From Kutzneria chonburiensis (GTDB lineage: Bacteria; Actinomycetota; Actinomycetes; Mycobacteriales; Pseudonocardiaceae), in NCBI RefSeq assembly GCF_028622115.1, contig NZ_CP097263.1:992001-1056000 (forward strand): DNA of 64,000 nucleotides, in the 5' to 3' direction. The translations under genes and the position numbers were made by a program. How positions within the stretch are numbered: position 1 is the stretch's first letter; the number at the start of each line of letters is the position of its first letter. Positions 4,437-51,216 of the stretch are shown in pieces. Under the pieces are notes generated by a model. That model ran no database searches. It saw only the letters and a list, made by a program, of their open reading frames with translations, and had not been told where the DNA came from.

Positions 4437-4449
4437 TCCGGCCGGCCGG

Positions 4450-7952: not shown

Positions 7953-7974
7953 CCGCGCCTCCCTTGCCCGTAGG

Positions 7975-8126: not shown

Positions 8127-8137
8127 TCAACTTGCTC

Positions 8138-8643: not shown

Positions 8644-8662
8644 TTGGTATACCAGATACCAA
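8644..8662 (+). promoter_or_regulatory. GntR/FadR-type operator before the DapA-like gene
   Basis: TTGGTATACCAGATACCAA is an inverted repeat (TTGGTAT-N5-ATACCAA) that also contains the 10-bp palindrome TGGTATACCA, the classic form of FCD-type GntR operators. It lies 15 bases before the DapA-like start codon. The FadR-type regulator at 9984-10670 is the obvious candidate to bind it (inference). Confidence 0.65.
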
Positions 8663-8677
8663 CGAGAGAGGGTGGCC

Positions 8678-9951: not shown

Positions 9952-9983
9952 GATCGAATCCCCCCGATGGTTGTGGGGTCAAT

Positions 9984-10670: not shown

Positions 10671-10672
10671 CG

Positions 10673-36525: not shown

Positions 36526-37116
36526 GTGGTCCAAGGCAACGCGCACGTCCGGTCCGACCGGGTGCTCACCATCCCCAACCTGCTGAGCATCCTGCGCCTG
36601 GCGGGCGTGCCGCTCTTCCTGTGGCTGCTGCTCGGCCCGCGCGAGGACGTGTGGGCCATCGTCGTGCTCGCGCTGGCCGCCATCTCGGACTGGCTGGACG
36701 GCAAGCTGGCCCGCTGGCTCAACCAGGCCAGCCGGCTCGGGGCCCTGCTCGATCCGGCCGCCGACCGGCTCTACATCCTGGCCACCGCGTTCGCCTTCGT
36801 GGTGCGGGACATCCTGCCCTGGTGGTTCTTCGGCCTGATCCTGCTGCGCGACGTCGCCGTCTCGCTCTGCCTGCCGCTGCTGCGCCGGGCCGGCTACGAC
36901 GCCCCCGACGTGATCTATCTCGGCAAAGCCGGCACCTTCTGCCTGCTGTACGCGCTGCCGATCCTGCTGCTGGCCCAGGTCGGCCCGGGCACCGCCCTGA
37001 TCGCCGGTCCGATCGGCTACGGCTTCGCCGGCTGGGGCCTGCTGATGCACGTGTGGTCCGGGGCCCTGTACGTCTTCCAGTGCGTCAACGCCGCCCGCCA
37101 TCCCGTGCGCCGCTGA
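36526..37116 (+). CDS. CDP-alcohol phosphatidyltransferase family protein
   Basis: A 196-residue integral membrane enzyme with the complete family motif DG-x2-AR-x8-G-x3-D-x3-D (SDWLDGKLARWLNQASRLGALLDPAADR) and about five to six membrane helices. It transfers a phosphatidyl group from CDP-diacylglycerol to an alcohol, as in phosphatidylglycerophosphate, cardiolipin or phosphatidylinositol-phosphate synthesis; the acceptor cannot be fixed. No ribosome site precedes the GTG, and TAGGCT at 36513-36518 is placed for a leaderless transcript. It is not linked to the genes on either side. Confidence 0.92.
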   Translation: MVQGNAHVRSDRVLTIPNLLSILRLAGVPLFLWLLLGPREDVWAIVVLALAAISDWLDGKLARWLNQASRLGALLDPAADRLYILATAFAFVVRDILPWWFFGLILLRDVAVSLCLPLLRRAGYDAPDVIYLGKAGTFCLLYALPILLLAQVGPGTALIAGPIGYGFAGWGLLMHVWSGALYVFQCVNAARHPVRR

Positions 37117-37158
37117 TCGACCCCGACCTCGGATCCGGGTCTCGTGCGGCTTGGTTCC

Positions 37159-37179
37159 GTTACACCTATTGACTGTAAC
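37159..37179 (+). promoter_or_regulatory. GTTACA-N9-TGTAAC operator before the PnbB-like gene
   Basis: A 21-bp inverted repeat, GTTACA (37159-37164), nine bases, TGTAAC (37174-37179), 49 bases before the DUF4863 gene. Its arms and spacing equal the two sites in the tetR divergent promoter at 45651 and 45687, so the same TetR protein probably binds here. Confidence 0.8.
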
Positions 37180-37228
37180 CCAACCTCGCCCTACCGTTGG
37201 TCGCATCCCCGACGGCAGGAGGCGCGAC

Positions 37229-37738
37229 GTGACCACCGCTCAGGAGCTGATCGACCGCAGCATCCCGTTCCTCGACCAGGTCAAGAACCGCACCGCCGGC
37301 GGCGAGCTGGAGACCTGGCTCAACACCACGTACGGACCGGGCAGCGAGCTGTACGAGGACCTGGCCCGCATGATCACTGACGGCGTGCGCGACGGGTGGG
37401 CGGCCAACGTCGAGGTGGACGGCCCGCACTACCGGCGCAGCCGCATCGCCGACCCGGCCGACCTGCTGAACTACTTCAGCATCACCGCGGTGTACATGGA
37501 CAGTGTCGAACCGTTCCGCGGCCAGTACCACCAGCACCCGTACGGCGAGCTCAACCTGGTCGTGCCGCTGACGCCCGGCGCGGAGCTGATGGGCCCGCGC
37601 GGCTGGCAGGGCCCGGGCTGGACCGCGCCGGGGCCGGGCAGCCATCACTACCCGGAGGTCCGCGGCGGTGCGCTGATCGCGCTGTTCTACCTGCCGGCCG
37701 GGCGGATCTCCTACGACATCACGCCGCCGGCCGCCTGA
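37229..37738 (+). CDS. DUF4863 / 4-hydroxylaminobenzoate lyase-like protein (PnbB family)
   Basis: A 169-residue protein that I assign to the DUF4863/PnbB family from the N-terminal LIDRSIPFLDQVKNRTAGGELETWLNTTYG and the cupin-like metal patch QYHQHPYGELNLVVPL, then GSHHYPEV. PnbB converts 4-hydroxylaminobenzoate to protocatechuate with ammonia release in nitrobenzoate breakdown. Family assignment is from memory and the reaction may differ here. GTG at 37229 has AGGAGG upstream. The TetR-type operator in front links it to the UbiX/UbiD block at 45.7-50.1 kb. Confidence 0.75.
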   Translation: MTTAQELIDRSIPFLDQVKNRTAGGELETWLNTTYGPGSELYEDLARMITDGVRDGWAANVEVDGPHYRRSRIADPADLLNYFSITAVYMDSVEPFRGQYHQHPYGELNLVVPLTPGAELMGPRGWQGPGWTAPGPGSHHYPEVRGGALIALFYLPAGRISYDITPPAA

Positions 37739-37750
37739 CACTCACCTTTT

Positions 37751-37805
37751 TGTCACATGCGGTCCGGATGTGCCTCAGGAAGGCAAGTATGACGCTCATG
37801 TGACA
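37751..37805 (+). promoter_or_regulatory. Widely spaced inverted repeat before the nitroreductase-araC operon
   Basis: TGTCACATG (37751-37759) and CATGTGACA (37797-37805) are perfect 9-base inverted repeats 37 bases apart, just before the nitroreductase start at 37833. Two well-separated half-sites suit an AraC-type regulator; the AraC gene is the second gene of this operon, so autoregulation is likely (inference). Confidence 0.55.
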
Positions 37806-37832
37806 TTCGAGGCGGGGTGGCGGGAGTCCACA

Positions 37833-38522
37833 ATGGATGTTGTCGAGGCGTTGTCGCGCCGGCGCAGCTGCCGCGGCTACGTGGCGAGGCCGGTGCCGCC
37901 GGAGACGGTGGAACGGTTGCTGGCATTGGCCTCCCGGTCGGCGAGCAACGCCAACTCGCAGCCGTGGCAGGTCCACGTCGTCACCGGGGCGGCCAAGCGA
38001 CGCCTGACCGCCGACCTGCTGGCCGCCTTCGACGCCGACGACCGTGGCCGTGACTACGACTACCAGCCGACCGACTGGCCGGAGCCGTTCCGCGCCCGGC
38101 GGCGGGAGTTCGGCGACCGGCTCTACGGCGAGGCGCTGGGCATCGGCCGGCACGACGCGGCCCGGCGACTGGCCCACCATCGTCGCAACTACGACTTCTT
38201 CGGCGCGCCGGTCGGCATGATCCTCACGGTCAGCCGGTCGCCGCGGCAGGGCGCGCTGGTCGACGCCGGCCTGTTCCTCCAGGCGTTCATGCTGGCCGCG
38301 GGCGCGCTGGGCCTGGACACGTGCGCGCAGGCGTCGCTGATCGACTTCTCGGCCGTGCTGCGCCGGAATCTGCGGATACCCGACGAGCAACTGATCGTGT
38401 GCGGACTGTCGCTCGGTTACGGCGACGGCGACCATTTGTCTACACGTTGCCGCACCGCGCGACTACCGGTGTCGTCCTTCACCACGTTTCACCACGACGA
38501 GGATGAATACTGCGAGGCATGA
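37833..38522 (+). CDS. Nitroreductase-family flavoprotein 1
   Basis: A 229-residue FMN-dependent nitroreductase-fold protein: RRSCRGYVARPVP at the FMN phosphate, ASRSASNANSQPWQVHVV, and FLQAFMLAAGALGLDTCAQASL near the second flavin contact. Enzymes of this fold reduce nitroaromatics, quinones or enones with NAD(P)H. The ATG at 37833 is chosen over an upstream in-frame start. It overlaps the AraC gene by 4 bases (ATGA), so the two form an operon. Next to a PnbB-like lyase, a nitrobenzoate-reductase (PnbA-like) role is conceivable. Confidence 0.9.
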   Translation: MDVVEALSRRRSCRGYVARPVPPETVERLLALASRSASNANSQPWQVHVVTGAAKRRLTADLLAAFDADDRGRDYDYQPTDWPEPFRARRREFGDRLYGEALGIGRHDAARRLAHHRRNYDFFGAPVGMILTVSRSPRQGALVDAGLFLQAFMLAAGALGLDTCAQASLIDFSAVLRRNLRIPDEQLIVCGLSLGYGDGDHLSTRCRTARLPVSSFTTFHHDEDEYCEA

Positions 38523-39373
38523 CCGCGGAGAATGTCCGTCGAAGACGGGACGACTGGCCCGAGGTGGGCTGGACCTCGCTGCGGCTGACGCAGTTCGACA
38601 ACGCCGAGCGGGCCGAGCTGCACCTGCCGCCGAGCGACCACCAGTCCATCGTGCTGGTCAACGCCGGCCGGCAGACCGTCGAATCACGTCACGGTTCCCG
38701 TTGGCACGCTGCGCACTACGGCCCCGGCACGGTCGGCCTGACCGCCCCGGGACAGTCGACCGACATCCGCTGGTGCGGCACGGAACGCACTCTCACCACG
38801 CATGTCGAGCTGCCAAGTGCCCTGATCGACCGCACCTGCGTCGAGCTGTGGGGCCGTGACGCCACCCGGCTGGGCCGGCCGGACGCGCTCGCGGTCGAGG
38901 ATCCCGTGTTGTCCTCGGTCGTCGATGCCTTGTGCGTGGCCGCCCGCAACGGAGTCGACGAGTTCTACGCCGAGTCGGCGGCGACCTTCCTGGCCGCGCA
39001 CCTGCTCACCGTGCACGCCGCCGCGCCCGCGCCGCGCGAGCTCGGGCGGGAGGACCAGCGGGTGCGGCGGGCGGCGCGCTTCATCCGTGACAACCACCAG
39101 CAGCCGTTGACGCTGGCCGAGATGGCGGCGGTGGCCGACCTGAGCCCGTTCCACTTCCTGCGGGTGTTCAAGGCGGCGACCGGGCAGACGCCGTACCGGT
39201 TCCTGACCAAGGTCCGGGTCGACCGGGCCCAGCGATACCTGGCCCGATCCGAACTGTCCATCACGGAAATCGCGCACCTGTGCGGATTCGCGTCCCCGTC
39301 CCGGCTGACCGCCGCCTTCCGCAGCGAAACCGGCATGTCACCCTCCGGTTATCGAGCGGCTGGATCGCAATAA
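38519..39373 (+). CDS. AraC-family transcriptional regulator
   Basis: A 284-residue AraC regulator: N-terminal cupin-like sensing part, C-terminal double helix-turn-helix (LTLAEMAAVADLSPFHFLRVFKAATGQTPYRFL and the second motif SITEIAHLCGFASPSRLTAAFRSETGMSPSGYR, each given in part). It is translated from ATGA overlapping the nitroreductase stop. It probably controls its own operon through the TGTCACATG repeats, and may also act on the molybdenum hydroxylase operon 60 bases downstream. Confidence 0.93.
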   Translation: MTAENVRRRRDDWPEVGWTSLRLTQFDNAERAELHLPPSDHQSIVLVNAGRQTVESRHGSRWHAAHYGPGTVGLTAPGQSTDIRWCGTERTLTTHVELPSALIDRTCVELWGRDATRLGRPDALAVEDPVLSSVVDALCVAARNGVDEFYAESAATFLAAHLLTVHAAAPAPRELGREDQRVRRAARFIRDNHQQPLTLAEMAAVADLSPFHFLRVFKAATGQTPYRFLTKVRVDRAQRYLARSELSITEIAHLCGFASPSRLTAAFRSETGMSPSGYRAAGSQ

Positions 39374-39435
39374 TCGCCCGTCGGGTACGCAATCTCCGGA
39401 ATGCGCGGCCGGGGGCGGCGACCTAACGTGACGGC

Positions 39436-39930
39436 GTGTCCACGAACGACTTGCCCGCCGCCATGGTCGAAGTGAGCTGCACGGTCAACGACGAGCCGGT
39501 CCGGCTGCGGCTGGATCCCCGGGAGTCGCTGCTGGACGTGCTGCGCGAACGGCTGGCCCTCACCGGCACCAAGAAGGGCTGCGACCAGGGCCACTGCGGC
39601 GCCTGCACGGTGCACCTGGACGGCCGCCGAGTGGTGTCCTGCCTGACGCCGGCCGTGCAGGCCGACGGCCTCGCGGTGCACACCATCGAGAGCGTCGGCG
39701 GCCCCGACGGCGAGCTGCATCCGTTGCAGCAGGCCTTCGTCGACAACGACGCGCTCCAGTGCGGCTACTGCACGCCCGGGCAGATCATGTCCGGCCTGGC
39801 CTGCATCGCCGAGGGGCACACCGCCCACGACGAGCAGATCCGGGAGTACATGAGCGGGAACGTCTGCCGCTGCGGCGCGTACGTCGGCATCGTGGCCGCC
39901 GTGCGCCAGGCCGCCGGGAAGGTGCAGTGA
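39436..39930 (+). CDS. Molybdenum hydroxylase 2Fe-2S subunit (PaoA/YagT-like)
   Basis: A 164-residue xanthine-dehydrogenase-family iron-sulfur subunit. The plant-ferredoxin-type cluster uses Cys49, Cys54, Cys57 and Cys69 (GCDQGHCGACTVHLDG...VSC); the second cluster uses Cys109, Cys112, Cys144 and Cys146 (CGYCTPGQ, CRCGAY). Unlike E. coli PaoA it lacks a Tat signal, so the enzyme should be cytoplasmic. Its stop overlaps the next gene by one base (TGATG). The three-gene operon encodes an aldehyde or aromatic-heterocycle oxidoreductase. Confidence 0.94.
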   Translation: MSTNDLPAAMVEVSCTVNDEPVRLRLDPRESLLDVLRERLALTGTKKGCDQGHCGACTVHLDGRRVVSCLTPAVQADGLAVHTIESVGGPDGELHPLQQAFVDNDALQCGYCTPGQIMSGLACIAEGHTAHDEQIREYMSGNVCRCGAYVGIVAAVRQAAGKVQ

Positions 39931-40928
39931 TGAAGCCCTTCGCCTATGCCGCGCCTTCGAGCGTGGACGCCGTGGTCGAGGCGCTGCGGGTGGCCGAGCC
40001 GGGGACCAGGATCCTGGCCGGCGGCACCACGTTGTACGACCTGATGAAGATCGGCGTCGAGTCGCCGCCCGCGGTGATCGACGTGCACCGGCTGCCCGAG
40101 CTGACCGGCATCACCGTGACGGACTCGGAGATCGTCTTCGGCGCCGGGGTGCGGATGGCCGACGTGTCGGCCCATCCCTTCGTGAGTGCCTCGTATCCGG
40201 CGCTGGCCGAGTCGATCTGGCGCGCGGCCACCCAGCAGCTGCGGAACATGGCCACGCTGGGCGGGAACCTGTTGCAGCGCACGCGATGCGGCTACTTCCG
40301 TGACGCGGACATGGCCTGCAACAAGCGGAATCCCGGCAGCGGCTGTGCGGCAATGGAGGGCATTGACCGTCCACATGCGTTGCTGGGCGCGAGTTCTTCT
40401 TGCAGCGCAACGTATGCCGGCGACTTCGGCATCGCGCTGCGGGCTTTCGACGCCGTGATTGATGTGATCGGGCCGCGCGGTGAACGCTCGCTGGCGTTGG
40501 CCGATCTGCACGTCGAGCCGGGGGAGGACCCGAGCCGGGAACACGTGTTGGAGGCCGACGAGCTGATCCTGCGTATCCGGGTGCCGCAGACCGAGGCCGG
40601 CCGGGGTTCCACCTATCTGAAGATTCGCGACCGCGAGTCCTACGCCTTCGCGTTGGCTTCGGCGGCCGTCGGGCTGGTGATCGACGGCGACGGCGTCGTC
40701 ACCGAAAGCCGGATCGCGTTGGGTGGCGTGGCCACGCGGCCGTGGCGGGCGGTCGAGGCCGAGCGGTCGTTGCTCGGTGGCCCGCTGACGCCGGACGCCA
40801 TGGCCCGCGCCGGCGAGCTCGCCTTCGCGGACGCGCGTCCCGGGCGTATGAACGGATTCCGAGTCGAGTTGGGCATGCGCACGGTGGCCGATGCCGTCCG
40901 CACCGCCGGGGAGCGAGCCGTCCGATGA
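39930..40928 (+). CDS. Molybdenum hydroxylase FAD subunit with 4Fe-4S insertion (PaoB/YagS-like)
   Basis: A 332-residue FAD-binding subunit of the xanthine dehydrogenase family (ILAGGTTLYDLMK flavin loop; TLGGNLLQRTRC). An insertion carries four Cys (120, 130, 139, 158; in RTRCGYF, MACNKRN, GSGCAAM, SSCSAT) that match the extra 4Fe-4S site of PaoB and of 4-hydroxybenzoyl-CoA-reductase-like enzymes. The ATG overlaps the previous stop by one base and its own stop overlaps the large-subunit start by 4 bases. Confidence 0.94.
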   Translation: MKPFAYAAPSSVDAVVEALRVAEPGTRILAGGTTLYDLMKIGVESPPAVIDVHRLPELTGITVTDSEIVFGAGVRMADVSAHPFVSASYPALAESIWRAATQQLRNMATLGGNLLQRTRCGYFRDADMACNKRNPGSGCAAMEGIDRPHALLGASSSCSATYAGDFGIALRAFDAVIDVIGPRGERSLALADLHVEPGEDPSREHVLEADELILRIRVPQTEAGRGSTYLKIRDRESYAFALASAAVGLVIDGDGVVTESRIALGGVATRPWRAVEAERSLLGGPLTPDAMARAGELAFADARPGRMNGFRVELGMRTVADAVRTAGERAVR

Positions 40929-43075
40929 GGGTCGACGCGTACGAGAAGGTCACCGGGAAGGCTTTGTACGGGGCCGACCGCGTGTTGCCGAACATGGCCT
41001 ACGCCGCCTTGGCCCTGGCCAAGATCGGCCGTGGCACGGTGTCCGATGTGGACACTTCGGCCGCGTTGGCCGTGCCGGGCGTGCTGCTCGTGGAGACCCG
41101 GTTCGAGTTGGCCAGTCCCGGCTTCATCATGGGCGGGCAGTTCGGGTTCCAGAGCCTGCAACCCATGACCGGCGACCACATCGCCTATCGCGGCCAGCCG
41201 ATCGCCATCGTCGTGGCGGAAACCCCGGTCGCCGCCACCGAAGCCGCCGAGGCGATCACCGCGACGTACCAGGAGGAGCCCTTCGCGCTGCACCTCGACT
41301 CCGAGGGCGCCACCACGCTCGTCCAGGAAGAGGCGATCCCGCTGCCGTTCCTGGCCGACATCAAGCTCGGCGATGCCGATGCCGTGATCGACAGCAGCGC
41401 GGTGCAGATCGACGCGACGTACGTGCACCCGCCGCAGCACGCCGTGCCGATGGAGCTCAACGGCGGCGTTGTCGAATGGCAGGGCGGTACGCTGATCGTG
41501 CACGAGGGCACCCAGAACGCCAACGCCGTCCGGTTCGGGCTGGCCCAGCAACTCGGCATCGACGCGGCCAAGATCGAGGTGCGATCTCCCTACGTAGGCG
41601 GCGGTTTCGGGCAGAAGAACTCGCTGTTGGTCCACATCGGACCGTTGGCCCTGGTGTCACAGCGGTTGGGACGTCCGGTGAAGCTCGTGCTGACCCGTAC
41701 CCAGACCTTCCACAACGGCAGCTTCCGTCCGGTCAGCAAGCAGCGGATCCGGCTCGGCGCGGACGAATCCGGCAAGATCAACGCCGTGGTGCACGAGGTC
41801 GACCAGCAGACGTCCCGGCACGACCTGTTCATCGCCATGCACAACGAGACTTCCAGCCGGCTCTACGGCTACTCCGCATTCCGCGGCCGGCAGCGCCTGG
41901 TGCAGACCGACGTGCAGACCCCGGGTTACATGCGGGCGCCGTTCGAGAGTCCGTCGATGTTCGCCATCGAGCAGGCGGTCGACGAGTTGGCCTACCGGGT
42001 CGGCCGTGATCCGGTGGAACTGCGGCTGGCCAACGACACCGAGAACGACCCGATCACCGGGCTGCCGTTCTCCAGTCGGCACATCGGCGACTGCCTGCGC
42101 CGCGGGGCCGAGCTTTTCGGCTGGTCCGAGCGTAGTCCGGAGCCGCGGTCGATGCGGGCCGAGGACGGGTCGCTGGTCGGTTGGGGCGTGGCCATCGGCA
42201 ACTATCCCGCCAGCATCGTGGCCGCCCACGCGAGTCTTGCCGCCGGCGAGGACGGCAAGGTGACCGTGGCCGTCGACGGACACGAGATGGGGCAAGGGAT
42301 TCGCTCCACCATCGCGTTGCTGGTCGCCCGCGATCTCGGGATCCCGGTGGGCGACGTGATCGTGCGGGTCGGCGACACCAGGTACGGTCCCCAGCACCTC
42401 ACCGCCGGCTCGTGGGGCACCGCCAGCGCGCTGCCGGCCGTCCACTCCGGACTCCAGGAGCTCCGCAAGCTGCTCAACGTTGCTGGCACCGGCGATGTCG
42501 ACGTCGCCGCCGCCGTGGCCGATATCGGTCACGCCGTCGAGGTGTCCGCTCACGGGCTGGGCCCCGGCCAGTCCGCCGATGCCTTGGGCCAGACCGAAAC
42601 CGGCCACATGGCCATCGCCGGCCCGGTGTTTCCCGGTTTCGTCACCTTCAGCTGGATCGCGCATTTCGTCGAGGTGCACGTCGAGCCGACCACCTGCCGC
42701 GTTCGGGTGCCCCGGGTCGTCAGCGTCGCCGACTGCGGCCGCGTCGCCAGTCCCGTCACCGCCGCCAGCCAGGTCCGTGGTGGCGTGATCTGGGGCATCG
42801 GCGCCGCGCTGCGGGAGGAATCCTTGGTGGACGACCGTTTCGGCGGCTTCCTGAACTCCACTTTGGAGGAATATCCGGTGATGGTCAACGCCGATGTGGG
42901 CAGCATCGACGTCGACTTCGTCGACAAGCCCGACTACCAGTTCAACCCGGTCGGCGTGAAGGGCCTCGGCGAGGTCTCCATGGTCGGCGCGGCCGCGGCC
43001 GTCGCCAACGCCGTGCACCACGCCACCGGTCGTCGCCACCACAGACTGCCGATTCGCATTGAGCACATCATCTGA
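40925..43075 (+). CDS. Molybdenum hydroxylase molybdopterin subunit (PaoC/YagR-like)
   Basis: A 716-residue large subunit that holds the molybdenum cofactor. RVDAYEKVTGKALYGAD at the start, YVGGGFGQKN, DGHEMGQGIRSTIALLVA and the catalytic Glu683 in GVKGLGE near the C-terminus are the family landmarks. PaoABC oxidises a broad range of aromatic aldehydes to acids, which would fit an aryl-acid catabolic block, but the substrate here is not proven. The last 17 bases overlap the proposed TTG start of the membrane protein that follows. Confidence 0.94.
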   Translation: MRVDAYEKVTGKALYGADRVLPNMAYAALALAKIGRGTVSDVDTSAALAVPGVLLVETRFELASPGFIMGGQFGFQSLQPMTGDHIAYRGQPIAIVVAETPVAATEAAEAITATYQEEPFALHLDSEGATTLVQEEAIPLPFLADIKLGDADAVIDSSAVQIDATYVHPPQHAVPMELNGGVVEWQGGTLIVHEGTQNANAVRFGLAQQLGIDAAKIEVRSPYVGGGFGQKNSLLVHIGPLALVSQRLGRPVKLVLTRTQTFHNGSFRPVSKQRIRLGADESGKINAVVHEVDQQTSRHDLFIAMHNETSSRLYGYSAFRGRQRLVQTDVQTPGYMRAPFESPSMFAIEQAVDELAYRVGRDPVELRLANDTENDPITGLPFSSRHIGDCLRRGAELFGWSERSPEPRSMRAEDGSLVGWGVAIGNYPASIVAAHASLAAGEDGKVTVAVDGHEMGQGIRSTIALLVARDLGIPVGDVIVRVGDTRYGPQHLTAGSWGTASALPAVHSGLQELRKLLNVAGTGDVDVAAAVADIGHAVEVSAHGLGPGQSADALGQTETGHMAIAGPVFPGFVTFSWIAHFVEVHVEPTTCRVRVPRVVSVADCGRVASPVTAASQVRGGVIWGIGAALREESLVDDRFGGFLNSTLEEYPVMVNADVGSIDVDFVDKPDYQFNPVGVKGLGEVSMVGAAAAVANAVHHATGRRHHRLPIRIEHII

Positions 43076-43270
43076 CCCCGGCGGCGGATCGAGCCCCGCC
43101 GGCGGGGCCGGTGTCGACGGCGGGTCGGCCGCTGATGCTCGTTCCTTGGTCAGCGCTGCTGATGCCTTGAGCACGTCATCTGACCCGGGCGTCAGTCCCG
43201 TTGCCGGGGCGGGTGTCGACGGTGTGCCGGCAGCCGACGCTCGTCCCGCGGTCAGCGCCCCCGATGCCTT
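43059..43270 (+). repeat. Degenerate tandem repeat at the paoC-like/membrane-protein junction
   Basis: Two coding repeats, 43059-43166 (108 bp) and 43167-43268 (102 bp), then the start of a third at 43269. Both begin TTGAGCAC(A/G)TCATCTGACCC, the sequence that ends the molybdenum-subunit gene, and code for STSSDPG...AGVDG..AADAR..VSA.DAL. The repeat seems to have grown from the 3' end of that gene into the N-terminus of the next. Confidence 0.75.
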
Positions 43271-44279
43271 GAGCCCGGCGGCGCTGGCCGAGGCGCGAGC
43301 CGCCCAGCCCCGACGTGCGTTGTTGGGCTTGCTGTTCGTCATCCCCGCATCGGTGTTGTTGGCCGTAGGGTGGGGCGGGCCGGTGCATTCGCTGACCGTG
43401 CTCGGCCCGCTCTTGACCTTCGCGCTGCCCATCGTCGCCGTGATCGCCTTCTGGTGGCAGGACTGGCCGGGTTCGCTGCTGACCGGCGGTTGGTCCGGCC
43501 TCGGCGACACCGTCATCGTCGCCCTGGGCGGCGTCGTCCTGACGGTCCTCGGCCAGGGTTTGCTCTCCGGCGTTGACCTGCAAGGCATTTTCGCCCCAGA
43601 CCCCGGTCATCCCTCTGTGTCCGAGACCGTGCCGCTGGCGGTCGGCATCTTCGGCCTCATCCTCCAACTCACCTTGGTCGGCGAGTGCTGGCCGCTACGT
43701 TCGCTGGCCCGAATCCCTTCCGGCATCGCCGCCCTCGTCCTGTGCTGGGCCGTCGGCTACATCCTCTACAGTGGACTCGTCAGCACCGGTCTGGTCGCCG
43801 GCGAGGCTTACGCCAGCTGGTTCGCCGCTTTGGGCATGTGGCAGATGGTCTGGTACGTCGCCTTGCGCGGTTGGCCTTTCGCCCGCATCCGCCACCACGC
43901 CACCCGACTCATCACCGGCCACCTCTCCGTCATCGCCTGCGGCGCCGTCACCTACCTCTTCGCCACGTCCGTCCTCGATTGGACGCCCGGCCGCATCGCC
44001 GAGGTCTCCGGCTCCGCCATCGCCGCCATCCTCGTCGTAGCCATGCTCTTCGAGGCGTGGCCCGCCATCCGCCTTACCGAGGTCCCCGGCCGCTCCCTCG
44101 CCCTCGTGCTCGTCGTGGCCCTGACCTTCGCGCTCGCCACGTTCCTACCGGTCGTCGCCGCCTGGCTCGGCGTGCCCGACCGCCAGGCCTTGAGCTGGTC
44201 CACCCACGCCACCCTGAACGCCTTGAGCCTCGCCGTCATCCTCCACGTCGCCGTCTGGCGCCGCTGGCTGGCTGACTGA
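43059..44279 (+). CDS. Multi-pass membrane protein with repetitive N-terminus
   Basis: A protein of up to 406 residues that I cannot name. The first 75 residues are Ala/Gly/Ser/Asp-rich tandem repeats; the rest holds about nine hydrophobic segments (LLGLLFVIPASVLLAVGW, LTFALPIVAVIAFWW and others), with Trp-rich loops. The start is uncertain: the TTG at 43059 overlaps the molybdenum subunit gene and has no ribosome site; GTG codons near 43111 or 43209 are alternatives. It may be a transporter for the substrate of the oxidoreductase, or an unrelated neighbour. Confidence 0.75.
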   Translation: MSTSSDPGGGSSPAGGAGVDGGSAADARSLVSAADALSTSSDPGVSPVAGAGVDGVPAADARPAVSAPDALSPAALAEARAAQPRRALLGLLFVIPASVLLAVGWGGPVHSLTVLGPLLTFALPIVAVIAFWWQDWPGSLLTGGWSGLGDTVIVALGGVVLTVLGQGLLSGVDLQGIFAPDPGHPSVSETVPLAVGIFGLILQLTLVGECWPLRSLARIPSGIAALVLCWAVGYILYSGLVSTGLVAGEAYASWFAALGMWQMVWYVALRGWPFARIRHHATRLITGHLSVIACGAVTYLFATSVLDWTPGRIAEVSGSAIAAILVVAMLFEAWPAIRLTEVPGRSLALVLVVALTFALATFLPVVAAWLGVPDRQALSWSTHATLNALSLAVILHVAVWRRWLAD

Positions 44280-44332
44280 GAAAGCCACTACGTCACAACG
44301 GCATCGCTCGGCATCAACGTCGTATCGGTGAC

Positions 44333-44998
44333 CTACCGGTTGGCGGGCCCCCACAGCGGCTCGGGGATTTCCGGTGTGTACGGGCGATCCCAATGGTTGC
44401 GGCTGCTCACCTCGTGCACGGGACGGCGGTTGGCGGCGACGCCCCAACGGCCCAGCGGATAGCCGAGCGCGAGCATGGCGGTCATCTGCCAACCCTCGTC
44501 GGTCGGCACGCCCAACAGCTCATGCACCTGCTCGGCCTGGTACCGCAGCATGGTCGTGATGATCCCGCCGACGCCCTCGGCCCGCGCGGCGAGCAAGGCG
44601 CTCCAGATCGCGGGGTAGATGTTGGCCCCGCCGTGGTCGTCGATGGCGAACACGAACAGCGGCAACGGAGTCTGTTCGAAGTGGTCGGCGAAGTACGTGC
44701 CGGAGCGGTTGATCCGCTGGAGGTTTTCCGCGTGTGCCACGGGATCATGGATGGTTCGGGCCAGAGTGCCGGCGGAGATCTCGGCGTACTCCATGGCCCG
44801 GGCAGCCCGGTAGAGGACGGCGAGCTCGGCCTTCACGGCGGGATCGTCCACGGCGATGAAGTGCCAACGCTGGGCATTGGCCCCGCTGGGGGCACGGATC
44901 GCGGCGTCAAGGATGCGGCTCTGGACGTCGACCGGAATCGGGTCCGGGCGCATGCGGCGCATCATGCGGGTGGTGTACAGCGCCTCGTGCACGTCCAT
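44333..44998 (-). CDS. Nitroreductase-family flavoprotein 2
   Basis: A 221-residue nitroreductase-fold protein: TRMMRRMRPDPIP at the FMN phosphate site, RAPSGANAQRWHFIAV, then AEGVGGIITTMLRYQAEQVHELLGVP and LALGYPLGRWG. This sub-type is close to the coenzyme-F420/FMN nitroreductase-like proteins of actinomycetes. The ATG lies 2 bases after the tetR stop, so both genes form a leftward operon and share the operator region. A role in reduction of a nitroaromatic or of a quinone-like intermediate is inferred from context. Confidence 0.9.
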   Translation of the reverse strand: MDVHEALYTTRMMRRMRPDPIPVDVQSRILDAAIRAPSGANAQRWHFIAVDDPAVKAELAVLYRAARAMEYAEISAGTLARTIHDPVAHAENLQRINRSGTYFADHFEQTPLPLFVFAIDDHGGANIYPAIWSALLAARAEGVGGIITTMLRYQAEQVHELLGVPTDEGWQMTAMLALGYPLGRWGVAANRRPVHEVSSRNHWDRPYTPEIPEPLWGPANR

Positions 44999-45000
44999 GA

Positions 45001-45630
45001 TCACTCCGAGGCGGCGATGGCCGGCCACAACACGGCCACCACACGGTCGGCGAGGTCCTTGGTCGGCTCGCCACGGTAGAAGGCGGCGAAGTAGCTGCCG
45101 AAGCACATGATCGCGATGGTGTGCGGGTCGATGCCGTCACGAACCGCGCCGCGCTCCCGCAACTGCCCCAGCACCTCTTCCAACATCGACACCCGCGGCT
45201 CGACGGCGTGCGTGCGCAGGATGTCGAGCAGCTCGGGGGTGCGGATGGCCTCGCCGGCGAAGTTGCCCATCAGCACCATGGCGTCCGGGTTGAAGTACGC
45301 CGGGTCGAGCCGCCGGACCGCCTCGACCAGGGCCTCGCGCGGCTCGAGCCCGGACAGGTCGACGGTGTACATGTCGCGCTGCCGGCGGAAGCCGTAGTCG
45401 AGCGCGTCCACGACCAGGTCGAACTTGGTGGCCCAGCGGCGGTACAGCGTCGGCCGGGTGACGCCGGCGTCGGTCGCGATGTCGCCGATGGTCATCCGCG
45501 AGTAGCCGTCCCGCACGAGCCGTTCCCGGGTGGCCAGGATGATGGCCTCGTCGATGGCCGCGTCCCGCGGCCGGCCGCCGAGGTTGCGCTCGCTGTGGTC
45601 CGCGCCGAGCTCGCTGTCGTCCTTCGCCAT
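45001..45630 (-). CDS. TetR-family regulator of the GTTACA-N9-TGTAAC regulon
   Basis: A 209-residue TetR regulator with the N-terminal helix-turn-helix YSRMTIGDIATDAGVTRPTLYRRW, then an all-helical ligand domain. It starts 20 bases from the first of two 21-bp palindromes in the divergent promoter, consistent with autorepression and repression of the rightward UbiX/UbiD operon. A third identical-type site 8 kb away, before the PnbB-like gene, extends its likely regulon. The inducer is probably an aromatic acid (inference). Confidence 0.93.
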   Translation of the reverse strand: MAKDDSELGADHSERNLGGRPRDAAIDEAIILATRERLVRDGYSRMTIGDIATDAGVTRPTLYRRWATKFDLVVDALDYGFRRQRDMYTVDLSGLEPREALVEAVRRLDPAYFNPDAMVLMGNFAGEAIRTPELLDILRTHAVEPRVSMLEEVLGQLRERGAVRDGIDPHTIAIMCFGSYFAAFYRGEPTKDLADRVVAVLWPAIAASE

Positions 45631-45650
45631 GACCCCACCCTAGCGGATCC

Positions 45651-45671
45651 GTTACAGCTGATGGTTGTAAC
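45651..45671. promoter_or_regulatory. GTTACA-N9-TGTAAC operator 1 of the tetR divergent promoter
   Basis: GTTACA (45651-45656), nine bases, TGTAAC (45666-45671), 20 bases from the tetR start codon. Same arms and spacing as the sites at 45687 and 37159. Confidence 0.85.
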
Positions 45672-45686
45672 TCTGCGTCTGGTTCG

Positions 45687-45707
45687 GTTACAGTCGCATC
45701 TTGTAAC
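45687..45707. promoter_or_regulatory. GTTACA-N9-TGTAAC operator 2 of the tetR divergent promoter
   Basis: GTTACA (45687-45692), nine bases, TGTAAC (45702-45707), 18 bases before the DsbA-family gene. Its start is 36 bases from that of operator 1. Confidence 0.85.
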
Positions 45708-45725
45708 GAAACCTGGGGAGGCGAC

Positions 45726-46307
45726 GTGATGGTCAGGCACTGGTTCGACTTCATGTGCCCGTTCTGCTACGTCGCCCAGCACCGCAACGACATCCTGGCG
45801 CGGCGCGGGATCGAGGTCGTGCACCTGCCGTACCAGATCCATCCCGAGATCCCGGAGGACGGCCTCGACGCCGGCCTGCGGATCGGGCCGATGTACGAGC
45901 ACCTCGACCGGGAGGCGGCCGCTGCCGGGCTGGTGCTGAACTGGCCGGCGCGGCTCTCCAACACCCGGAGAGCGCTCTCCGTGGCCGAGTGGATCAGGCG
46001 AACTGCGCCGGACAAGGCCGACGACTTCACCAAACGCCTGTTCCACGCCTACTTCGTCGACGGCGAGAACCTTGGCGACCCAGCCGTGGTCGAGCGGCAT
46101 GCCACTGCGGTTGACATCGATGTCGACGAGCTTCGGGGAGCGCTCTCCGACGGCACCGCCGCTACCTGGCTGGTCGAGTCCGAGCTGGCCGGCGCCGAAG
46201 CCGGCGTGCGGGCCACCCCCAGCTGGGAGATCAACGGACAGCTGATCTCCGGGCTGCTGCCCGCGTCCGAGTTCGAGCGCCTGACCGCCGCGCGCCGTCC
46301 GGCCTGA
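45726..46307 (+). CDS. DsbA/FrnE-family thioredoxin-fold protein
   Basis: A 193-residue thioredoxin-fold protein with a CPFC active site close to the N-terminus (HWFDFMCPFCYVAQHRND), a helical insertion and a cis-Pro loop (GVRATPSWEINGQLISG). The family includes FrnE, DsbA-like oxidoreductases and 2-hydroxychromene-2-carboxylate isomerase, a glutathione-type enzyme of naphthalene breakdown. A cytoplasmic role in the operon is likely since no signal peptide is seen. GGGGAGG precedes the GTG; an ATG follows directly at 45729. Confidence 0.88.
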   Translation: MMVRHWFDFMCPFCYVAQHRNDILARRGIEVVHLPYQIHPEIPEDGLDAGLRIGPMYEHLDREAAAAGLVLNWPARLSNTRRALSVAEWIRRTAPDKADDFTKRLFHAYFVDGENLGDPAVVERHATAVDIDVDELRGALSDGTAATWLVESELAGAEAGVRATPSWEINGQLISGLLPASEFERLTAARRPA

Positions 46308-46378
46308 GCCGACGCGACCGAACGATCCGACAGCGCCGCCGCATGCCCGGCTGCGCCGAGAAAATATGAGGTCTGCTC

Positions 46379-46954
46379 ATGCGACTGGTTGTCGCCATCA
46401 CCGGCGCCACCGGCACGGTGCTGGGGGTACGCCTGCTGGAGGTCCTGCGGAAGCTCGACGTGGAGACGCACCTGGTGCTCAGCGACTGGGCCCGGGCCAC
46501 GCTCAGCCTGGAGACCGACTACACGGTCAACGACGTGCGAGCGCTGGCCACGTACACCCACAGCGCCAAGGACCTCGCCGCCGCCATCTCCAGCGGCTCG
46601 TTCCTCACTGACGGCATGGTCGTCTGCCCGTGCAGCATGAAGACGTTGGCCGCCATCCGCATGGGCTACGGCGACAACCTCATCACCCGGGCCGCCGACG
46701 TCACCCTCAAGGAACGCCGCCGCCTGGTGCTGGTGGCCCGCGAGGCGCCGCTGAGCGAGATCCACCTGGAGAACATGCACTACCTGGCCCGGGCCGGCGC
46801 GGTCATCTTCCCGCCGACCATCGCCTACTACACCAAGCCGAACTCGGTCGACGACGTCACCGACCAGATCGCCGGCCGCGTCCTCGACCAGCTCGACATC
46901 CAGCACTCGACGATCGACCGCTGGAAGTCGCCCCTCACGGAGGAGAAGCAGTGA
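46379..46954 (+). CDS. ubiX: UbiX-like flavin prenyltransferase
   Basis: A 191-residue flavoprotein of the UbiX/Pad1 family: VVAITGATGTVLGVRLLEVL (FMN loop), SGSFLTDGMVVCPCSMKTLAAIRMGYGDNLITRAADV and KERRRLVLVAREAPLSEIHLENM. UbiX prenylates FMN to make the cofactor that UbiD decarboxylases need. It overlaps the UbiD gene by 4 bases (GTGA), the usual pairing. Gly-Ala-Thr-Gly-Thr replaces the common GASG loop, a minor variation. Confidence 0.95.
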   Translation: MRLVVAITGATGTVLGVRLLEVLRKLDVETHLVLSDWARATLSLETDYTVNDVRALATYTHSAKDLAAAISSGSFLTDGMVVCPCSMKTLAAIRMGYGDNLITRAADVTLKERRRLVLVAREAPLSEIHLENMHYLARAGAVIFPPTIAYYTKPNSVDDVTDQIAGRVLDQLDIQHSTIDRWKSPLTEEKQ

Positions 46955-48531
46955 GCACCAGCACCACCAGTGCCCCGGCCGCCACCTCGCGGACCGGTCC
47001 CGACCTGCGCAGCTGGCTGTCCACCCTGGAGCAGGCCGGCCAGCTGGCCCGTATCGGCGCCGAGGTCGACTGGAACGAGGAGATCGGCGCGATCACCCGG
47101 GCCAACCTCGCGCTGGAGGGCCCCGGCCTGCTGTTCGAGAACATCACCGGCCACCAGGACACCGTCTGCACCAAGTTCCTGACCTCGGCGCTGGGCAACC
47201 GCCGGCAGGTCCAGCTGATGCTCGGCCTACCCGAGGGAACCTCGGATTCGGCCATCGTCCGGCACCTGCGCGAGCGGTTCCAGCACCCCGTGCCGCCCCG
47301 TGTCGTCGAGCGCGGTCCGGTGCAGGACAACGTGATCGAGGGCGACGACATCGACCTGGAGCAGTTCCCCGTGCCCCGCTGGCACGCCGCCGACGGCGGC
47401 CGCTACATCGACACCTTCTGCGGCGTCGTGACCCAGGACAGGTACACCGGCCGCGACAACATCGGCCTGTACCGCGGGCAGATCGTGGACCGCGACAAGA
47501 TCGCCAAGCTGCTGGTCCCCAGCCAGGGCTGGGGCGTGCACGCCGAGGAGTACAAGCCCGAGCCGATGCCGGTGGCCATCGTGTACGGCTGGCACGACGT
47601 GCTGCCGTTCTGCGCGGGCAGCCCGTTCCCACGCAACGTCTGCGAGTGGGACATGATGGGCGCGCTGCTCGGCCAGCCGGTCGACCTGGTGGCGTGCGAG
47701 ACCGTGCCGCTGCACGTGCCGGCCACCGCCGAGATCGTGGTCGAGGGCTACATCGACCCCGACCCGGCCACCTTCATGATGGAGGGGCCGTTCGCCGAGT
47801 ACCCGGGCTTCGTCGGCGACGCTGCGCCGGCTCCGGTCGTGCGGGTCACGCGCATCATGCACCGCACCGACCCGGTGCTGCGCGGCACGCTGGAGGGCAT
47901 CCGGCCCGGGCTGCTCAACGAGGACAGCATCACCAACTTCGCCCGCTCGGCCATCACCTGGAACACCCTCGAGGACCTCGGCATCGGCGGCATCACCGAC
48001 CTGTGGATGACCGAGGTGTCCAACGGCCAGAACACCATCGTGCAGATCCAGAAGCGCTACCGCGGCCACGCCCAGCAGATCGCCTCGGCGCTGTGGGGCA
48101 CCGGCGGCTCGGTGTGGTTCCACAAGAACGTCACCGTGGTCGAGCAGGACATCGACATCCACGACCCGGTCGCGCTGGACTGGGCGCTGTCCTACCGGGT
48201 CAACGTGGGCCTCGGCGACGTCGCGTTCTTCGGCCCCGGCATCGGCTCGGCCCTGGACCCGTCGACGCCGCCGGAGCTGAACAACGGCGCCAAGTACGGC
48301 ACCGGGCAGTGGACCCGGATGCTCGTCGACGCCACCCGCAACTGGGAGATCGACCCGCGGCCGGAGTGGGGCGGCCGCCGCTTCCCGCCGACCGACCGGC
48401 TGGAGCCGGAGCTGGAGGCGCGGGTGGCCGATCGCTGGGCGGAGTACGGCATCGGCGTGCCCTACCTCGACGACGCCGGCCGCGAACGGCTCACCCTGGC
48501 CGAGCTCAGCAAGCGTCTGCCCGAAGTGTGA
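46951..48531 (+). CDS. ubiD: UbiD-family prenyl-FMN-dependent decarboxylase
   Basis: A 526-residue UbiD-type enzyme. FPVPRWHAADGGRYIDTFCGVVTQD, NIGLYRGQI (with the catalytic Arg region), EGPFAEYPGFVGD (catalytic Glu region) and the C-terminal ATRNWEIDPRPEWGGRRFPP are typical. Family members decarboxylate (or carboxylate) aromatic and alpha,beta-unsaturated acids such as 4-hydroxybenzoate, vanillate, protocatechuate or cinnamates. GGAGGA precedes the GTG. Together with the PnbB-like protein (whose product class is protocatechuate) this suggests removal of an aryl carboxyl group, but the substrate is unproven. Confidence 0.94.
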   Translation: MSTSTTSAPAATSRTGPDLRSWLSTLEQAGQLARIGAEVDWNEEIGAITRANLALEGPGLLFENITGHQDTVCTKFLTSALGNRRQVQLMLGLPEGTSDSAIVRHLRERFQHPVPPRVVERGPVQDNVIEGDDIDLEQFPVPRWHAADGGRYIDTFCGVVTQDRYTGRDNIGLYRGQIVDRDKIAKLLVPSQGWGVHAEEYKPEPMPVAIVYGWHDVLPFCAGSPFPRNVCEWDMMGALLGQPVDLVACETVPLHVPATAEIVVEGYIDPDPATFMMEGPFAEYPGFVGDAAPAPVVRVTRIMHRTDPVLRGTLEGIRPGLLNEDSITNFARSAITWNTLEDLGIGGITDLWMTEVSNGQNTIVQIQKRYRGHAQQIASALWGTGGSVWFHKNVTVVEQDIDIHDPVALDWALSYRVNVGLGDVAFFGPGIGSALDPSTPPELNNGAKYGTGQWTRMLVDATRNWEIDPRPEWGGRRFPPTDRLEPELEARVADRWAEYGIGVPYLDDAGRERLTLAELSKRLPEV

Positions 48532-49529
48532 TGGGCATCCACGTCAGCGTGGCGCTGCCGGCGTCGGCCGAGTCGACCGCTCACATCGTGACGGCCGAGC
48601 GGCTGGGCTACCGCTGCGCCTACGTCTACGACACGCCGTTCGAGGGCAGCGACGTCTGGCTGGCGCTGCACGAGGCCGCCGAGGCGACGGCGAGCATCGC
48701 GCTCGGCCCGGCCGTGCTGATCCCGACGCTGCGCCACCCGCTGGTCAACGCGGCACAGACCTTTTCCTTGCACCGCAAGGCGCCCGGTCGTGTCGTGACC
48801 GCGTTCGGCACCGGCTTCTCCAGTCGTGCCGCGGCCGGACAGCCGCCGGTTCCGTGGTCCTATGTCGAGAAGTACGTCCGCGCGCACACTTCCCTGCTGG
48901 CCGGCGAGGCAGCCGAGTGGGACGGCGCGCCGATCCAGCTGATGCCGACCTCGACGCAGCACGAGACGTTGCCGCTCAAGATCCCGCTGCTGATCGCGGC
49001 CGTAGGGCCGAAGGGCGCGGAGGTGGCCCGCCGGCTCGGCGCCGACGGAATCATGTCGATGTTCCAGCCCATCCCGCAGCAGCGGGACTTCAGCCGGGCG
49101 GTGGTCTCGGCCGTCGGCACCGTGCTTGATGATGGCGAGGAGCTGAACAGCGAGCGGGTGCGGCTGGCTGCCGGCCCGCCGTGGGCCGGCGTCTTCCACT
49201 TCACGTACACCGCGCAGGGGGCCGACGCGGTGCGCGCGCTGCCCGGCGGACCGGCTTGGCTGGAGGTCATCGAGCGGTACCCGGAAGCCGAGCGGCACCT
49301 GCACATCCACCGTGGCCACATGGTGGAGATGAACGAGGCCGACCTGGCCGCGTGGCACGCCGGCGGGTACGTCACGCTGACCTCGGGCACGTTGACCGGG
49401 CCTGCTGAGGTGGTGCGTCAGCGCGTGGCCGACCTGGCCGCGGCCGGCGCCACCGAGATCATGATCGAGCCGTCCGGCCCGGACATCGAACGCGAGCTCA
49501 CCGCGTTCATCGCCGCCGTGTGCGGCTGA
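48531..49529 (+). CDS. LLM-class (F420-dependent type) oxidoreductase
   Basis: A 332-residue luciferase-like TIM-barrel protein: HIVTAERLGYRCAYVYDTPFEGSDVWLAL, ALGPAVLIPTLRHPLVNAAQTF, and LLIAAVGPKGAEVARRLGADGIM. Actinobacterial members often use F420, some FMNH2. They reduce or oxygenate aromatic and alcohol substrates. The ATG overlaps the UbiD stop by one base (GTGATG), so it is the fourth gene of the TetR-controlled operon. Confidence 0.9.
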   Translation: MGIHVSVALPASAESTAHIVTAERLGYRCAYVYDTPFEGSDVWLALHEAAEATASIALGPAVLIPTLRHPLVNAAQTFSLHRKAPGRVVTAFGTGFSSRAAAGQPPVPWSYVEKYVRAHTSLLAGEAAEWDGAPIQLMPTSTQHETLPLKIPLLIAAVGPKGAEVARRLGADGIMSMFQPIPQQRDFSRAVVSAVGTVLDDGEELNSERVRLAAGPPWAGVFHFTYTAQGADAVRALPGGPAWLEVIERYPEAERHLHIHRGHMVEMNEADLAAWHAGGYVTLTSGTLTGPAEVVRQRVADLAAAGATEIMIEPSGPDIERELTAFIAAVCG

Positions 49530-49575
49530 CCGGGCACGATTCCGTAGCCACGGGGCGCGCGGGCCCGATGGGATC

Positions 49576-50097
49576 ATGGCGTGGGTGGACATCGCACGTG
49601 CGCTCAAGCCCGGCGACGGGCACTCCGTGATGATCTCCGGCTTCGGGGCGACCCTCAAGCTGGACAGCAGGGACAGCGGCACCGTCGGCATCGTGGAGCA
49701 CTCGTTCGCCGTCGGCACGATCACCGTGCCGCACCGGCACAGCCGCGAGGACGAGCACTCGTTCGTGCTCGACGGGGAGATCGGCTTCCGCTCCGACGAC
49801 ACCGAGGTCGTGCTCGGCCCCGGCGGCTTCGTCTCGAAGCCCCGGGGCCGGCTGCACGCCATGTGGAACGCCGGCGGCCGGCCCGGCCGGATACTGGAGG
49901 TCATCGCGCCCGGCGGGTTCGAGCACTACTTCCGTGAGCTGGCCGAGCTGCTCGGGTCGGTGACGCCGGCCGGCACCGCGCTCCACGACACGTCCGAGTT
50001 CGTCGAGCTGGCCGCCCGCTATGGCCTCAGCTACGGCAATCCCGAGTGGCTGGACGACGTCGTGGCCCGCTACGGCCTCACGCCGCCGCGGCGCTGA
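49576..50097 (+). CDS. Cupin-domain protein of the UbiX/UbiD operon
   Basis: A 173-residue single cupin with the metal motif HRHSREDEHSFVLDGEIG (two His, Glu, then His) and a second half GGFVSKPRGRLHAMWNAG with the fourth ligand. It lacks catalytic hints beyond the metal site; ring-cleavage dioxygenases and isomerases share this fold. It lies 46 bases after the LLM gene and is probably the last gene of the operon. Its stop directly abuts the stop of the convergent methyltransferase. Confidence 0.88.
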   Translation: MAWVDIARALKPGDGHSVMISGFGATLKLDSRDSGTVGIVEHSFAVGTITVPHRHSREDEHSFVLDGEIGFRSDDTEVVLGPGGFVSKPRGRLHAMWNAGGRPGRILEVIAPGGFEHYFRELAELLGSVTPAGTALHDTSEFVELAARYGLSYGNPEWLDDVVARYGLTPPRR

Positions 50098-51090: not shown

Positions 51091-51133
51091 CGCACGCCTT
51101 CCGCCCGAGGACCGTTCGTCCACAATGTACAGA

Positions 51134-51159
51134 CTGAAGCGTTATTCAGGTTGCTTCAG
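51134..51159. promoter_or_regulatory. Inverted repeat in the methyltransferase/protease divergent promoter
   Basis: CTGAAGC (51134-51140) and GCTTCAG (51153-51159) form a 7-base inverted repeat with a 12-base spacer; a shorter palindrome, CTGAA-N6-TTCAG, is nested in it (51134-51149). It may be an operator for either gene. Confidence 0.4.
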
Positions 51160-51216
51160 GATCCGTTCAGCCTCTTTTCGGCATGATTCCCGCAGCACTC
51201 GCAGAAGGGAAGCGCG

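What the first reader, a model, noticed from the sequence alone, without database searches (positions are those of the whole stretch)
37159..45707. Three identical-type GTTACA-N9-TGTAAC operators define a TetR regulon that joins a PnbB-like lyase with a UbiX/UbiD operon
The 21-bp palindromes at 37159, 45651 and 45687 have the same arms and the same 9-base spacer. Two lie between tetR (with nitroreductase 2) and the DsbA-ubiX-ubiD-LLM-cupin operon; the third is 49 bases before the DUF4863/PnbB-like gene 8 kb away. The chance of three such 12-base patterns in GC-rich DNA, all in promoters, is small. One inducible pathway over both loci is therefore likely.
Basis: partly seen in the sequence, partly recalled or inferred. 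Interest (0 to 1): 0.75.

Follow-up and report, generated by a model that had tools for sequence, protein, structure and literature searches.

The report
TetR operators controlling nitroaromatic-acid breakdown genes
Three matching DNA switches in a soil actinobacterium mark one repressor's likely control over genes that appear to break down nitro-substituted aromatic acids, and the same switch recurs in front of the key enzyme gene in many other actinobacteria.

Summary
GTTACA-N9-TGTAAC occurs three times in the 10.41-Mb Kutzneria genome, all in this window, all in promoters. Spacers share length, not sequence. Of 200 family genomes 10 have the perfect motif; all 10 carry this TetR's ortholog, and none of the 186 without a detected ortholog has it. 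Of 46 actinobacterial pnbB loci, 37 have the operator (0-1 mismatch) before pnbB; of 39 proteobacterial ones none does, and 38 have a LysR gene near pnbB. In 28 of 42 operators a fixed place reads TTGACT (-35), and in 24 of 42 a TAnnnT follows 17-18 bases on: repression by blocking RNA polymerase.

The recurring core is tetR, pnbB and nitroreductases. TetR binding and the substrate (probably 4-nitrobenzoate-like) are untested.

The parts
37159..37179 (+). operator O1 (GTTACACCTATTGACTGTAAC), in front of pnbB
37169..37197 (+). predicted pnbB promoter: -35 TTGACT (37169-37174, inside O1), 17 nt, -10 TACCGT (37192-37197)
   Evidence: TAnnnT at spacing 17 in 22 of 42 actinobacterial loci; coordinates
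37229..37738 (+). pnbB-like gene (PF16155, 4-hydroxylaminobenzoate lyase family); a relative is annotated DUF4863 in a public record
   Evidence: E 4e-65, 218.9 bits, cut-off 26.9; for the DUF4863 name
37833..38522 (+). nitroreductase 1 (PF00881), PnbA-like by position
   Evidence: start by conservation with sister species
38519..39373 (+). AraC-family regulator
39436..39930 (+). 2Fe-2S subunit, PaoA/XdhC-like
   Evidence: below the equivalog cut-offs
39930..40928 (+). FAD subunit of the molybdenum hydroxylase (by position and conservation; no family search was run on it)
   Evidence: conserved in four sister loci, 82-86%
40925..43075 (+). molybdenum-binding subunit, nearest PaoC (aldehyde oxidoreductase), below cut-off
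43059..44279 (+). predicted membrane protein, no Pfam match; start uncertain
   Evidence: conserved in sister loci
44333..44998 (-). nitroreductase 2 (PF00881), downstream of tetR
45001..45630 (-). TetR-family regulator, the predicted binder of O1-O3
   Evidence: PF00440, PF16859; all-helical model, pLDDT 82.9
45651..45671 (.). operator O2; its right arm holds the predicted -35 (TTGTAA) of the dsbA promoter; 8 bp from the predicted tetR -10 (TAGGGT, 45642-45637 minus)
45687..45707 (.). operator O3; its left arm holds the predicted -10 (TACAGT, 45689-45694) of the dsbA promoter
45726..46307 (+). DsbA/FrnE-like thioredoxin-fold protein with a CPFC motif
46379..46954 (+). ubiX-like flavin prenyltransferase
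   Evidence: TIGR00421 265.2 bits, cut-off 108.9; VdcB 280, cut-off 290
46951..48531 (+). ubiD-family decarboxylase
   Evidence: TIGR00148 257.9 bits, cut-off 244.85
48528..49529 (+). LLM-class (luciferase-like) flavin oxidoreductase
49576..50097 (+). small cupin protein

Best explanation
The TetR protein encoded at 45001-45630 is a substrate-inducible repressor of a nitroaromatic-acid breakdown regulon. It binds the three GTTACA-N9-TGTAAC sites. At O1 it covers the -35 box of the pnbB promoter and silences the operon pnbB-nitroreductase 1-araC-molybdenum hydroxylase-membrane protein. At the paired sites O2 and O3, 36 bp apart, it covers the -35 and -10 boxes of the dsbA operon and the promoter of its own gene. 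A nitroaromatic acid or an early intermediate releases it. The enzymes then most likely work as: aldehyde to acid (molybdenum hydroxylase), nitro to hydroxylamino (nitroreductase), hydroxylamino acid to a catechol-type acid plus ammonia (PnbB). In this genome a UbiX/UbiD pair, added later to the dsbA operon, may decarboxylate the product. Shown by sequence: the sites, their rarity, co-occurrence with this TetR, recurring position before pnbB, overlap with promoter-like elements. Inferred: TetR binding, direction of control, the inducer, every enzyme activity, operon structure.
For: Three sites genome-wide, all in promoters. Family scan: perfect motif in 10 of 200 genomes (21 sites; reversed-pattern control 4 sites in 4 genomes), TetR ortholog (E <= 1e-55) in 14 of 200, the motif genomes all among the 14, Fisher p 4e-14; the other 4 TetR genomes have 1- or 2-mismatch palindromes beside tetR or pnbB. 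20 of the 21 perfect sites lie in the tetR/pnbB loci. In 46 actinobacterial pnbB loci the best operator within 200 bases upstream of pnbB has 0 mismatches in 24, 1 in 13, 2 in 5, and is absent in 4; shuffles give <=1 mismatch in 1 of 9200 trials. -35 hexamer TTGACT at one fixed place in the operator in 28 of 42; TAnnnT at spacing 17 in 22 and 18 in 2 of 42, at spacings 8-16 and 19-35 in none, at 6-7 in five. Other genes behind the operator in relatives fit the chemistry: an MFS transporter nearest to aromatic-acid/H+ symporters (below cut-off), arylamine N-acetyltransferase, nitroreductases.
Against: No binding, expression or enzyme data. Loci without TetR within the stretch still have the operator at <=1 mismatch in 3 of 8 cases, so the local link TetR-operator is strong, not perfect (Fisher p 0.004); tetR may lie elsewhere in those genomes, which was not checked. 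One locus (L085) has TetR but no operator at pnbB, and three more have it only at 2 mismatches. One perfect site (G126, L040) is in a stretch without tetR. The TetR scan scored at most 15 candidates per genome, so an ortholog could be missed. 15 bp between half-site centres is long for one TetR dimer, so binding as a pair of dimers, or contacts inside the spacer, would be needed (recalled, not tested). O2/O3 promoter boxes are weak matches (TTGTAA, TACAGT), and a sigma-70 consensus scan found no promoter in 37000-51200, the pnbB one included.
Confidence: 0.82

Rival explanations
1. The palindromes are bound by another conserved regulator, for example the AraC protein encoded inside the pnbB operon, and tetR is a bystander.
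For: AraC lies within the pnbB operon in the window and in four sister Kutzneria loci.
Against: In the 40 loci L050-L089 AraC is found beside pnbB only in the three Kutzneria ones (plus a distant 34% hit in L077), while the operator recurs; TetR is present in 38 of 46 loci; the perfect motif does not occur in the 186 family genomes without a detected TetR ortholog.
Confidence: 0.06
2. The TetR regulates pnbB and the nitroreductases, but ubiX-ubiD-LLM is only a passenger in the dsbA operon and serves another pathway. (Compatible with the main explanation.)
For: ubiXD-LLM is absent at this place in sister loci, and UbiD from the sister genomes above 36% identity; no operator of its own; a 71-base gap separates dsbA and ubiX; UbiD is far below the VdcC decarboxylase cut-off (246.1 bits, cut-off 650).
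Confidence: 0.4
3. The regulon is a detoxification response to nitro compounds or arylhydroxylamines (for example from competitors' antibiotics) and not a growth pathway. (Compatible with the main explanation.)
For: Nitroreductases, DsbA/FrnE-like redox protein, arylamine N-acetyltransferase behind an operator in L037; pnbAB is placed downstream of chloramphenicol in Nocardia testacea CS1 (PMC13400229, passages).
Against: A transporter nearest to aromatic-acid/H+ symporters behind an operator in L034, and a fusion of iron-type dehydrogenase and catechol-type dioxygenase divergent from pnbB in L074, point to use as a carbon source.
Confidence: 0.3

Closest known systems
pnbA/pnbB (4-nitrobenzoate reductase and 4-hydroxylaminobenzoate lyase) of Proteobacteria, with pnbR
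   Same: PnbB family (59-68% identity in the 39 proteobacterial loci), a nitroreductase relative (36-45%) in the stretch in 36 of 39; route nitro to hydroxylamino to protocatechuate described in PMC9590159 (passages)
   Different: Proteobacterial loci carry a LysR-family gene within 4 kb of pnbB in 38 of 39 and no GTTACA-N9-TGTAAC; actinobacteria carry TetR and the operator, 0 of 41 with that LysR
TetR-family repressors
   Same: HTH PF00440, nine-helix all-alpha model, palindromic operator at own promoter
   Different: No close solved relative (best phmmer E 8e-11, 2id3); no equivalog cut-off reached
UbiX/UbiD hydroxyarylic acid decarboxylases (VdcBC, AroY)
   Same: UbiX just below the VdcB cut-off (280 of 290); UbiD family model passed
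   Different: UbiD far below the VdcC cut-off; nearest solved chain 7pda, chains named 3,4-dihydroxybenzoate/protocatechuate decarboxylase much weaker
Chloramphenicol catabolic cluster of Nocardia testacea CS1 (chd genes plus pnbAB; PMC13400229, passages seen)
   Same: actinobacterial pnbAB induced with a nitroaromatic pathway
   Different: its proposed regulator is an IclR protein, ChdR; 'TetR' has 0 occurrences in the main text

Membership tests
TetR family | N-terminal TetR helix-turn-helix (PF00440) | tested here: met
   38.9 bits, cut-off 24
TetR family | all-helical fold matching solved TetR structures | tested here: met
   9 helices, pLDDT 82.9; Foldseek probability 1.00 for the 50 listed chains, TetR-family proteins by their titles in most
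TetR family | palindromic operator at own promoter | tested here: met
   O2, O3; binding itself not tested
TetR family | ligand-released DNA binding | not testable with these tools
   needs EMSA or expression
4-hydroxylaminobenzoate lyase (PnbB, PF16155) | passes the family's gathering score | tested here: met
   218.9 bits, cut-off 26.9; only copy in the genome
4-hydroxylaminobenzoate lyase (PnbB, PF16155) | lyase activity on 4-hydroxylaminobenzoate | not testable with these tools
   no solved relative found; structure model poor (pLDDT 39.6)
proteobacterial pnb system | nitroreductase gene adjacent to pnbB | tested here: met
   37833-38522
proteobacterial pnb system | LysR-family regulator near pnbB | tested here: not met
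   38 of 39 proteobacterial, 0 of 41 actinobacterial loci; window has TetR and AraC
UbiD family decarboxylase | UbiD model over cut-off with a UbiX partner | tested here: met
   TIGR00148 257.9 of 244.85; TIGR00421 265.2 of 108.9
hydroxyarylic acid decarboxylase VdcBC | VdcC subunit model over cut-off | tested here: not met
   246.1 bits, cut-off 650

The most novel reading that the evidence does not exclude
Actinobacteria and Proteobacteria run the same pnbAB enzymes under unrelated regulators: in Actinobacteria a TetR repressor whose operator is fused to the -35 box, in place of a LysR protein. This Kutzneria then placed a prenylated-flavin decarboxylase (UbiX/UbiD) and an LLM oxidoreductase under the same switch. 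That would be a new branch: nitroaromatic acid to hydroxylamine to dihydroxybenzoate-type acid to decarboxylated catechol-type product.
Probability: 0.25. Interest if true: 0.6.

Novelty: new member of a known kind. Interest (0 to 1): 0.5.

Why it matters
It predicts, with an operator sequence that can be tested at once, who controls nitroaromatic-acid breakdown in many actinobacteria, where a pnbB relative is still annotated DUF4863. It ties genes of unclear role (DsbA-like, cupin, second nitroreductase, transporters, arylamine N-acetyltransferase) to that chemistry. It also shows the same enzymes under two unrelated regulators, and it could serve as a nitroaromatic-acid sensor. The listings of the full-text searches showed no paper whose title or abstract start names this TetR or operator; beyond listings I saw passages of four papers, and the library lacks most subscription journals.

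Tried and rejected
AraC as the binder of the palindromes: rejected because AraC is missing beside pnbB in the operator-bearing loci outside Kutzneria. Chance: rejected. A large hidden regulon of weaker sites in this genome: not supported; of the 50 sites listed (52 in all) about 29, counted by eye, are copies of a dispersed repeat with core GTTTCACGCATTCGGTGTGAC, a different element. PnbB structure: the model was too poor to use, so no fold claim is made; a cupin-like fold is stated for pfam16155 in PMC6449761 (passage). Plasmid origin of ubiD: no plasmid match at 1e-100. DUF4863 in papers: none. The original pnb paper was not held.

Rows dropped and limits of counts: the 46 loci are L050-L089, the window, L035, L037, L038, L045 and L137. 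L099 was left out (pnbB start missing). L034, L036, L039, L041, L043, L046, L047, L048 and L049 were left out as the same genomes as named loci (equal contig lengths). L040, L042, L044 and L138 have no pnbB. L072 and L075 are from one strain, L037 and L038 from one genome. One search kept the best 80 of 125 loci. In one search, 10 of the operator-neighbour genes without a window relative were scanned with Pfam, not all. In one search LysR hits were counted at E <= 1e-25 within 4 kb of pnbB; L034/L086 has another gene that looks LysR-like to me beside the MFS gene (sequence, no family search). UbiD scans scored at most 3 candidates per genome. Absence of UbiX and LLM in sister species was tested in the fetched 20-kb stretches only; absence of UbiD in whole genomes.
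Full report
Check of the observation. The three palindromes are present at the stated places with identical 6-base arms and 9-base spacers that differ in sequence. The genome of 10.41 Mb holds these three perfect copies and no others; with two mismatches there are 52 against 32 for the reversed control, one of them with a single mismatch.

Genes. Site O1 lies 49 bases before a gene that matches PF16155 (PnbB, 4-hydroxylaminobenzoate lyase) at 218.9 bits. Behind it on the same strand follow a nitroreductase, an AraC regulator, a three-part molybdenum hydroxylase nearest to the aldehyde oxidoreductase PaoABC (below cut-offs; the FAD part was not searched), and a membrane protein. O2 and O3 lie between tetR-nitroreductase 2 and the genes dsbA-ubiX-ubiD-LLM-cupin.

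Who binds. In 200 genomes of the family the perfect motif is in 10 (21 sites; reversed control 4 sites in 4 genomes) and the TetR ortholog in 14; all 10 are among the 14 (Fisher p 4e-14). The remaining four (G042, G098, G151, G141) have palindromes with one or two mismatches next to tetR or pnbB. Of the 21 perfect sites, 20 lie in the tetR/pnbB loci; the exception is one site in G126 before a zinc-type dehydrogenase gene. Two genomes (G147, G175) have TetR and operators without pnbB, there with a DsbA (42%, 39%) and a cupin gene. PnbB is in 13 of the 200 genomes, 8 of them among the 10 with the perfect motif.

Recurrence before pnbB. A scan of one genome per species with a PnbB alignment gave 80 loci (best 80 of 125), 41 from Actinomycetota and 39 from Proteobacteria by the organism names in their titles, phylum recalled. 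With four more chromosomal loci, one plasmid locus and the window, less L099, 46 actinobacterial pnbB loci were scored: best operator within 200 bases at 0 mismatches in 24, 1 in 13, 2 in 5, none in 4. With TetR in the stretch 34 of 38 have it at <=1 mismatch, without TetR 3 of 8 (p 0.004). None of 39 proteobacterial loci has it at <=2 mismatches within 400 bases. Those loci have a LysR-family gene within 4 kb in 38 of 39, while 0 of 41 actinobacterial loci have that gene (LysR confirmed by Pfam for two of them).

How it works. In the operator before pnbB the sequence TTGACT occupies one fixed place in 28 of 42 sites, and TAnnnT follows at 17 bases in 22 and 18 bases in 2; spacings 8-16 and 19-35 give none, and spacings 6 and 7 give five in all. 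In the window this reads TTGACT-17-TACCGT. The repressor site thus contains the likely -35 box, the simplest layout for blocking RNA polymerase. At the divergent promoter the arms of O2 and O3 coincide with TTGTAA-18-TACAGT before dsbA, with 17 bases in three sister species by reading the alignment (in CA-103260 the gene that follows is cupin). A TAnnnT six bases before the tetR ATG suggests a leaderless tetR message. These boxes at the divergent promoter are weak and remain inference; a strict sigma-70 scan reports no promoter anywhere in 37000-51200.

What the regulon is for. In relatives the operator also precedes an MFS transporter nearest to the aromatic-acid/H+ symport and PcaK models (below cut-offs), nitroreductases, cupin, DsbA, an arylamine N-acetyltransferase and other transporters. 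This agrees with breakdown of a nitro- or hydroxylamino-aromatic acid. The route nitrobenzoate to hydroxylaminobenzoate to protocatechuate by PnbA and PnbB is described in PMC9590159 (passages), and pnbAB downstream of chloramphenicol in a Nocardia in PMC13400229 (passages).

UbiX/UbiD. In G087 and Kutzneria sp. 744 dsbA and cupin are adjacent; in CA-103260 cupin follows the operator directly; none has a ubiX, ubiD or LLM relative in the stretch. A UbiD below E 1e-130 was found in 3 of 394 genomes of the class and in the same 3 of a phylum sample of 396: this genome, G265 and G281. Of six other genomes marked same genus, G087 has UbiD relatives of 33-35% elsewhere and five have none at 1e-40. 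In G265 a cluster holds nitroreductase 2, a short-chain dehydrogenase, UbiX, UbiD, a hydrolase, DsbA and LLM with a divergent IclR-type gene, and neither this TetR nor the operator in the 20-kb stretch; G265 has no PnbB match. G281 has UbiX and UbiD between transposase genes. So these enzymes occur together elsewhere, and in this genome ubiX-ubiD-LLM appears to have been added to the TetR-controlled operon. Gain here seems likelier than repeated loss, but no tree was made.

Verdict. The three operators and the regulon are well supported by comparison. The strongest part is the recurring TetR-operator-pnbB link in actinobacteria, with the likely -35 box inside the operator, against a LysR gene in proteobacteria. 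The UbiX/UbiD join is real in this genome by position but is a local part of it.

Noticed in passing
own genome, e.g. G000:C1:4070112-4070154 (L140): A dispersed long hairpin element (about 90 bases, ends CCCCCGCGAGTCCCG / CGGGACTCGCGGGG, core GTTTCACGCATTCGGTGTGAC) with 34 core matches at up to 2 mismatches; none in the window at up to 3.
   Followed up: partly
37751-37759 and 37797-37805: Perfect inverted repeat TGTCACATG / CATGTGACA in the stretch between pnbB and nitroreductase 1; three sister Kutzneria loci lack this stretch in the alignment. Possibly a site of the AraC protein.
   Followed up: partly
   Followed up: partly
L134 (G281) 4391-11975: A second UbiX/UbiD pair of this rare type (75% and 74%) flanked by transposase genes, which would fit horizontal movement.
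   Followed up: no
L074 7822-9885: Fusion of an iron-containing dehydrogenase (maleylacetate reductase type, recalled) and a catechol-type dioxygenase, divergent from pnbB with a 1-mismatch operator between.
   Followed up: no
L037 9287-10102: Arylamine N-acetyltransferase gene directly behind an operator that also faces tetR.
   Followed up: no
L037 and L038 (G113): One genome carries two pnbB-tetR loci, each with operator-like sites (0 mismatches in one, 1 in the other).
   Followed up: no
L052 16957-17826: In Kutzneria buriramensis the place of the dsbA operon behind the operator is taken by an aminoglycoside/hydroxyurea phosphotransferase-family gene.
   Followed up: no
L069, L071, L076: Actinobacterial pnbB loci with neither this TetR nor the operator nor the proteobacterial LysR in the stretch; another regulator is expected.
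   Followed up: no
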